Assembly (NCBI GenBank): GCA_021162845.1
Contig: JAGGXX010000018.1
Location: 1 to 64,000, forward strand
Origin: Thermoprotei archaeon
GTDB taxonomy: Archaea; Thermoproteota; Thermoprotei; QMSL01; B3-G16
DNA length: 64,000 nt
Reading direction: 5' to 3'
Shown here: one piece after another, positions 5,944-7,301 of the stretch
Layout: each line of letters starts with the position of its first letter
How positions within the stretch are numbered: position 1 is the first letter of the stretch
Position numbers and translations under genes: made by a program
Notes under the pieces: model-generated
What the model saw: the letters and a program-made list of their open reading frames with translations, nothing else
The model's database searches: none
Told to the model about the DNA's origin: nothing

Positions 5944-7301
5944 ATGGAGATGGCCTATAAGGATGCTAAGGAGTTAGTGTTTGGAAGAGCTAAGAAGCCC
6001 TTAAGCTATGAATTTGATATCGAAGTTGGGAAGGGTTCGGTCATTCCTGAGATCAAGTATTGGCCTAACAGAGGTGCCGAGGGTAATGAAGAAAAGCTGA
6101 GAAAGGAGTTTGAGCGAATAACCATTGATCTCTTAGAGAGCAGTCGATCTAGGGGGTTAGCTCACTTCAGCTTGAGACGGAACTGAGCTATTCTATCACT
6201 TTAAGGCCTAGATTAGCTGAGGAGATAATTGATAAGCAGAAGACCTTAATGGAACGATACCATTCAAAATACGGGATAAAGCTAGCGCTCAGGGTAACCC
6301 CTGCAGACATAACGTGGGCTGCGTAAGTTAAAGTATGAAGAAGCATTAAACATAATGTTTGAGACGTTCGAGGCAGTAGCTAAGGCCGGAGCAGACGTAC
6401 TTTCGATAGAGTCAATAGAGGGGAAGGAAGTATTTAATTATTCGCTTGTAAGAGAGGATATGAAGGGAATTGTCCTGGCTCTGAGGATCCTCGCTACTAG
6501 GGATATGAAGAGGCTGTGGAAGGAGATAGCGAGCATAGCTAATAGAAACCACGTGATACTAGGGGGAGATATCGCTTGCGGCTTTGCCAATACTGCCATG
6601 AGGTTAGCTGGAGGTAGAGTACGTAGGCTAATACCGCATGTCACGGCTGCTACGGTAAGGGCTATGAGCGTCCCTAGAAGCCTTATAGCTTACGAGTGCG
6701 GTGCCGTAGGTCCAGGTAAGGACTGCGGTTATGAGAACGTGATAGTAAAGGCCATAACAGGTTATCCCATGTCCATGGAAGGAAAGACTAGCGCTGTAGC
6801 TCATAGCAGCCTCCTGGGTAATGTAATCGCGGCTACATGCGATTTATGGTCCAATGAGCAGGTCGAAAACATTAGGCTATTCGGGGGGGAGCGGCCCGCA
6901 GGTATTTCTTGAAATCCTATTCTATGATGCCGAGTTCATGAATACAGCCTTAAGGCTGGGCAAGGAATATGAGGTAAGGGACATCTTGACCGAATCAGAT
7001 AGGTATAGGGATCCCCAGGCATTGATCTTAACACCGGAGATCGCCTGGAGCATAGGTAACGAGATAGTGATGCACAGGCAGAACGAGTATCTGAGGGTAA
7101 TAAAGGCAGGGAAAGGCCTTACGGCTAATGAAGGATGCCGTGAGGGAAGGACTTCTGGCTATAGATAAAAGGGAGGAAATGTATTTAGATAAGTCCATCA
7201 GAGCTTTGGAGGGATTACCAGAGGATGAAGACGACTTCATAGATATGACTCTGCATGAATACAAGTCTAAGGTAAGGGGCTTTTTAATTAGTTGTCCTTA
7301 A
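5944..7301 (+). pseudogene. mtaB: decayed methanol:corrinoid methyltransferase (MtaB-like), at least four frame changes
   Basis: MtaB-like segments in successive frames: MEMAYKDAKELVFGRAKKPL...IPEIKYWPNRG; QLETELSYSITLRPRLAEEIIDKQKTLMERYHSKYGIKLALRVTPADI; LKYEEALNIMFETFEAVAKAGADVLSIESIEGKEVFNYS...SLIAYECGAVGPGKDCGYENVIVKAITGYPMSMEGKTSAVAHSSLLGN...; QVFLEILFYDAEFMNTALRLGKEYEVRDILTESDRYRDPQALIL; MKDAVREGLLAIDKREEMYLDKSIRALEGLPEDEDDFIDMTLHEYKSKVRGF*. Confidence 0.9.

What the first reader, a model, noticed from the sequence alone, without database searches (positions are those of the whole stretch)
5944..7301. Fossil mtaB: methanol:corrinoid methyltransferase broken across five frame segments
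Sequence: MtaB-like blocks appear in order in frames 1,0,1,2,0 and read end to end as one ~450-aa protein. One break falls at a 7-G run (~6883-6889). Established: MtaB is the methanol-activating enzyme of methyl-dependent methanogenesis and methylotrophy, and needs MtaC and MtaA; neither is in this window. Inference: the lineage recently had corrinoid methyl-transfer metabolism and is losing it. Most other ORFs here are intact, arguing against generally poor sequence. A decayed mtaB in a TACK-type genome would bear on whether its ancestor was a methyl-reducing methanogen.
Basis: partly seen in the sequence, partly recalled or inferred. Interest (0 to 1): 0.88.

Follow-up and report, generated by a model that had tools for sequence, protein, structure and literature searches.

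The report
Freshly broken archaeal methanol-enzyme gene
A heat-loving uncultured archaeon carries a recently broken copy of the gene for a methanol-activating enzyme that its relatives keep intact, while the rest of its vitamin-B12-type methyl-transfer machinery still looks functional, so this is the ordinary loss of one substrate entry point and not a fossil of methane production.

Summary
It is the only mtaB match in the genome searched (2.18 Mb, 95% complete). A frameshift-aware alignment finds five indels (-2, +1, +1, +1, -2), no in-frame stops, a changed 3' end, 265/434 residues identical to the intact MtaB of the same family's genome, and all three zinc ligands kept. Shuffles score 14-20 against 1241.

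The break is recent. The protein branch is no longer than in intact sisters. A metagenome protein 86/87 identical in the 3' part reads straight through the last lesion and has a normal C-terminus. Assembly error is not excluded without reads, but the mixed indels, the changed 3' end, the same broken ORF on three contigs and 25 paralogue matches without internal stops argue against it.

The wider inferences fail. The genome keeps an MtgC/MtbC-type corrinoid protein, an activator, MttB-, MtrH/MtgA- and MtaA-like methyltransferases. No mcrA occurs in 61 genomes of the class. Intact MtaB of relatives stands alone, away from any MtaC. So the methanol entry is lost, not corrinoid methyl transfer, and methanogen ancestry is not tested. 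Modest interest.

The parts
5935..7301 (+). broken mtaB (methanol:corrinoid methyltransferase family), whole remnant
5944..6135 (+). N-terminal block, first frame
   Evidence: PF12176 positions 5-72
6136..6137 (+). lesion 1: net -2 at a GA repeat
6149..6156 (+). lesion 2: net +1 at a run of five G
6153..6308 (+). second block; 42/52 aa identical to the G001 MtaB
6309..6312 (+). lesion 3: net +1
6355..6912 (+). 185-aa ORF, central block with the zinc ligands (Glu, Cys, Cys aligned to 2I2X chain A 164, 220, 269)
6883..6889 (+). lesion 4: net +1 in a run of seven G
6854..7168 (+). 104-aa ORF; an identical broken ORF is recorded on 3 contigs
7112..7113 (+). lesion 5: net -2; absent from P0242, a metagenome protein 86/87 aa identical here
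7128..7301 (+). C-terminal block; ends LISCP-stop where P0242 ends DPAVYEL (changed 3' end)

Best explanation
This is a very young pseudogene of a stand-alone mtaB in an uncultured Thermoproteia archaeon whose near relatives include Guaymas Basin 'Thermoprotei' MAGs. Shown: a full-length MtaB of about 455 aa, placed with its own order in the tree, broken by five small indels and a changed 3' end, with residue-level constraint intact until very recently. Inferred: the intact enzyme moved the methyl group of methanol (or a similar small substrate) onto a corrinoid protein of the MtgC/MtbC type shared with other methyltransferases. Loss of mtaB would remove that one entry point, while the rest of the corrinoid methyl-transfer equipment, probably serving betaine- or amine-type and S-methyl or O-methyl substrates, stays in use.
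For: PF12176 in five pieces, E down to 2.5e-85. MtaB structure 2I2X chain A matched over 446 residues, E 8.6e-119, with the zinc ligands kept. Five indels, no in-frame stop, 265/434 identity to G001. End branch 0.43, equal to intact sisters (about 0.42-0.49 from the same fork), and placed with its own order at 97/85 support. Only 1 of 72 strongly conserved columns changed. P0242 is 86/87 identical, reads through lesion 5 and has a normal C-terminus. Retained machinery: corrinoid protein, activator, MttB family, MtrH/MtgA, MtaA-like. Intact mtaB in 9 of 60 relatives, plus one fragment.
Against: Indels outnumber nonsense changes 5 to 0, which is unusual for slow neutral decay and is what base-calling or assembly errors would give. 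No reads were available. No intact full-length copy closer than 62% was found, so lesions 1-4 were not compared with a near-identical intact allele. Relatives' MtaB score below the NCBI MtaB cut-off (541-554 against 720 bits), so methanol as the substrate is not proven.
Confidence: 0.78

Rival explanations
1. The gene is intact in the cell and the indels are sequencing or assembly errors in this contig, for example from mixed strains.
For: All internal lesions are 1-2 base indels, two of them in G runs; no nonsense change; no accelerated protein divergence. P0242, nearly identical, is intact across lesion 5.
Against: Three lesions are not homopolymer errors (-2 at a GA repeat, +1 at 6309-6312, -2 at 7112). 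The 3' end differs from P0242 by more than one base. The identical broken 104-aa ORF is on 3 contigs and the broken 185-aa ORF represents a 7-member cluster, though these may share reads. The 25 URO-D matches of the genome show no internal stop.
Confidence: 0.18
2. The fragments are still used: the 185-aa central ORF, or frameshifted translation, gives a functional product.
For: The central ORF keeps all zinc ligands and has its own ATG.
Against: Five shifts in both directions and the loss of most of the barrel; relatives keep a single full-length ORF.
Confidence: 0.03
3. The decayed mtaB is a remnant of a methyl-reducing methanogen ancestor.
For: mtaB is used with mcr by methyl-reducing methanogens (established).
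Against: No mcrA in 61 genomes of the class. MtaB is intact and mcr-free in 9 relatives. The MtaB clade lies with Brockarchaeota, Nitrososphaeria and Thermofilaceae sequences, apart from methanogens. MtaB is often laterally acquired (PMC9635834).
Confidence: 0.03

Closest known systems
MtaB, methanol:corrinoid methyltransferase of Methanosarcina (PDB 2I2X chain A; PF12176; NCBIfam NF040651)
   Same: Whole-length homology (E 8.6e-119) and the zinc ligands Glu164, Cys220 and Cys269 conserved
   Different: Broken here; relatives' intact copies score below the methanogen equivalog cut-off; no MtaC-type partner and no mcr
MtaB of Brockarchaeota and other non-methanogen Thermoproteota (PMC8065059)
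   Same: Same part of the tree, mcr-free lineages
   Different: In Brockarchaeota corrinoid genes are reported always beside mtaB; in the relatives inspected here no corrinoid gene lies beside mtaB

Membership tests
MtaB (PF12176) | Sequence match over the whole family profile | tested here: met
   Five pieces covering profile positions 5-455 of 460, all over the cut-off
MtaB (PF12176) | Zinc ligands of the active site | tested here: met
   Alignment to 2I2X chain A; ligand identity from my own knowledge of the structure
MtaB (PF12176) | One open reading frame | tested here: not met
   Five frame lesions
Methanol-specific MtaB (NF040651 equivalog) | Score over NCBI's cut-off of 720 bits | tested here: not met
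   Intact relatives 541 and 554 bits
Methanol:corrinoid system | MtaC-type corrinoid partner | tested here: not met
   The genome's one PF02607 corrinoid protein is MtbC/MtgC type: 219 and 216 bits against 122-134 for MtaC, cut-offs 420-450; the same in relatives
Methyl-reducing methanogenesis | mcrA | tested here: not met
   0 of 61 genomes; control genomes ring
Pseudogene | Disabling lesions confirmed by reads | not testable with these tools
   No reads available; indirect evidence
Pseudogene | Relaxed constraint on residues | tested here: not met
   No longer branch than intact sisters and 1 of 72 conserved columns changed: either very recent or not a real pseudogene

The most novel reading that the evidence does not exclude
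In this part of Thermoproteia a stand-alone MtaB works without any MtaC, handing methyl groups to a corrinoid protein of the glycine-betaine/amine type shared with other methyltransferases. The window shows that this modular entry point can be switched off, still polymorphic among close strains, without loss of the shared core.
Probability: 0.3. Interest if true: 0.45.

Novelty: new member of a known kind. Interest (0 to 1): 0.23.

Why it matters
It warns against reading a single broken mtaB as a relic of methanogenesis: substrate-specific corrinoid methyltransferases come and go while the shared corrinoid machinery stays. It also points to mcr-free Thermoproteia with MtaB but no MtaC-type protein, which is a testable gap in the picture of archaeal methylotrophy.

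Tried and rejected
An intact second mtaB in the genome: none. An intact near-identical full-length copy in 5.8 billion clustered proteins: best 62%, but a partial near-identical one exists (P0242). A test for accelerated or relaxed residues: no signal. Search for a downstream C1 route: no MCH, FTHFS, CdhC or MTHFR in the genome. The absence of MCH does not explain the mtaB loss, because relatives G022, G024, G026, G028, G032 and G046 keep mtaB without MCH. A first tblastn run used the wrong strand for some loci and was repeated.

Full report
What is there. Window 5935-7301 (+) is a single mtaB gene broken into five blocks. A frameshift-aware alignment to nine intact relatives scores 1241, against 14-20 for dinucleotide shuffles. 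It places five indels: -2 near 6136, +1 in the G run at 6149-6156, +1 at 6309-6312, +1 in the seven-G run at 6883-6889 and -2 at 7112. There is no in-frame stop codon. Identity is 265/434 to the MtaB of G001 (same family) and 265/436 to that of G003 (same order). The read-through protein aligns with MtaB of Methanosarcina (2I2X chain A, E 8.6e-119) and keeps the three zinc ligands (ligand identity from my own knowledge).

Where it is. The window is contig 58 of a 2.18-Mb, 68-contig genome estimated 95% complete. Exact matches in a named collection identify relatives: G003's mtaB contig is Thermoprotei archaeon B12_G16 and G001's is B3_G16, both from Guaymas Basin, with others named Thermofilaceae or Thermofilales (the Guaymas origin is read from the scaffold names). 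Of 60 relatives, 9 have an intact mtaB and one has a fragment.

How old is the break. The protein branch of the broken copy (0.43) is no longer than those of intact sisters (about 0.42-0.49 from the same fork), and it sits with its own order at 97/85 support. Only one of 72 columns conserved at 97% or more is changed. A metagenome protein, P0242, is identical at 86 of 87 aligned residues in the 3' part, runs straight through lesion 5 and ends DPAVYEL, whereas the window ends LISCP. So either the gene broke very recently, with intact alleles still around, or the indels are errors.

Error or real. For error: only indels, no nonsense change, two of them in G runs, no residue-level decay. Against error: three lesions are not homopolymer lengths, two of them 2-base losses; the 3' end is altered by more than one base; the identical broken 104-aa ORF is recorded on three contigs and the broken 185-aa ORF represents a cluster of seven sequences, although these may come from the same reads; 25 URO-D matches in the same genome show no internal stop. 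Two more genes in the window are disrupted, one of them by a plain nonsense codon. I put the chance of a real pseudogene near 0.8. Reads would settle it.

What the organism keeps. One corrinoid protein with no stop inside, of the MtgC/MtbC type and not the MtaC type; a corrinoid activator of 604 aa; an MttB-family protein closest to glycine betaine methyltransferase structures; an MtrH/MtgA-family protein; an MtaA-like protein matching methylcobalamin:CoM methyltransferase; and many further URO-D proteins, a family known for varied corrinoid methyltransferases (PMC10418091). It lacks mcrA, MCH, CdhC, MTHFR and FTHFS matches, so the final methyl acceptor is unknown. Corrinoid methyl transfer is therefore not being lost as a whole; one substrate entry is.

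Why absence of mtaC and mtaA nearby says little. In the relatives inspected mtaB stands alone with no corrinoid gene beside it. The six relatives whose corrinoid proteins I scored (seven proteins, all from genomes with intact mtaB) have the MtgC/MtbC type only. In Brockarchaeota, by contrast, corrinoid genes are reported beside mtaB (PMC8065059). Relatives' MtaB scores 541-554 bits against NCBI's 720-bit cut-off for the methanogen enzyme, so the substrate may be methanol or something similar; this is inference.

Methanogenic ancestry. No mcrA in 61 genomes of the class. The MtaB lies among those of other mcr-free Thermoproteota and apart from methanogens. The literature finds MtaB acquired laterally several times and not traceable to the methane-metabolising ancestor (PMC9635834).

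Verdict. It is most likely a young pseudogene of a known enzyme family, of modest interest. The less expected lead is the stand-alone MtaB without an MtaC-type partner in intact relatives.

Noticed in passing
36381-37163 (-): A D-aminopeptidase (peptidase M55, DppA-like) gene is split by a single in-frame TGA between two blocks that match the family in order: a second, nonsense-type disruption in the window.
   Followed up: partly
10623-12490 (-): A peptide-type ABC permease pair: the first permease is frameshifted near 12089-12150 and its remainder is fused in frame to the second.
   Followed up: partly
7317-9485: LarC (-) and LarB (+) of the nickel-pincer cofactor lie directly downstream of the broken mtaB.
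   Followed up: no
relatives G003, G022, G028, G032, G046, G050: Intact mtaB together with only MtgC/MtbC-type corrinoid proteins and no MtaC-type.
   Followed up: partly
30397-30497, 36218-36332, 37215-37308, 40183-40274: Four tRNA matches of 92-115 bases, longer than usual, as with archaeal tRNA introns.
   Followed up: no
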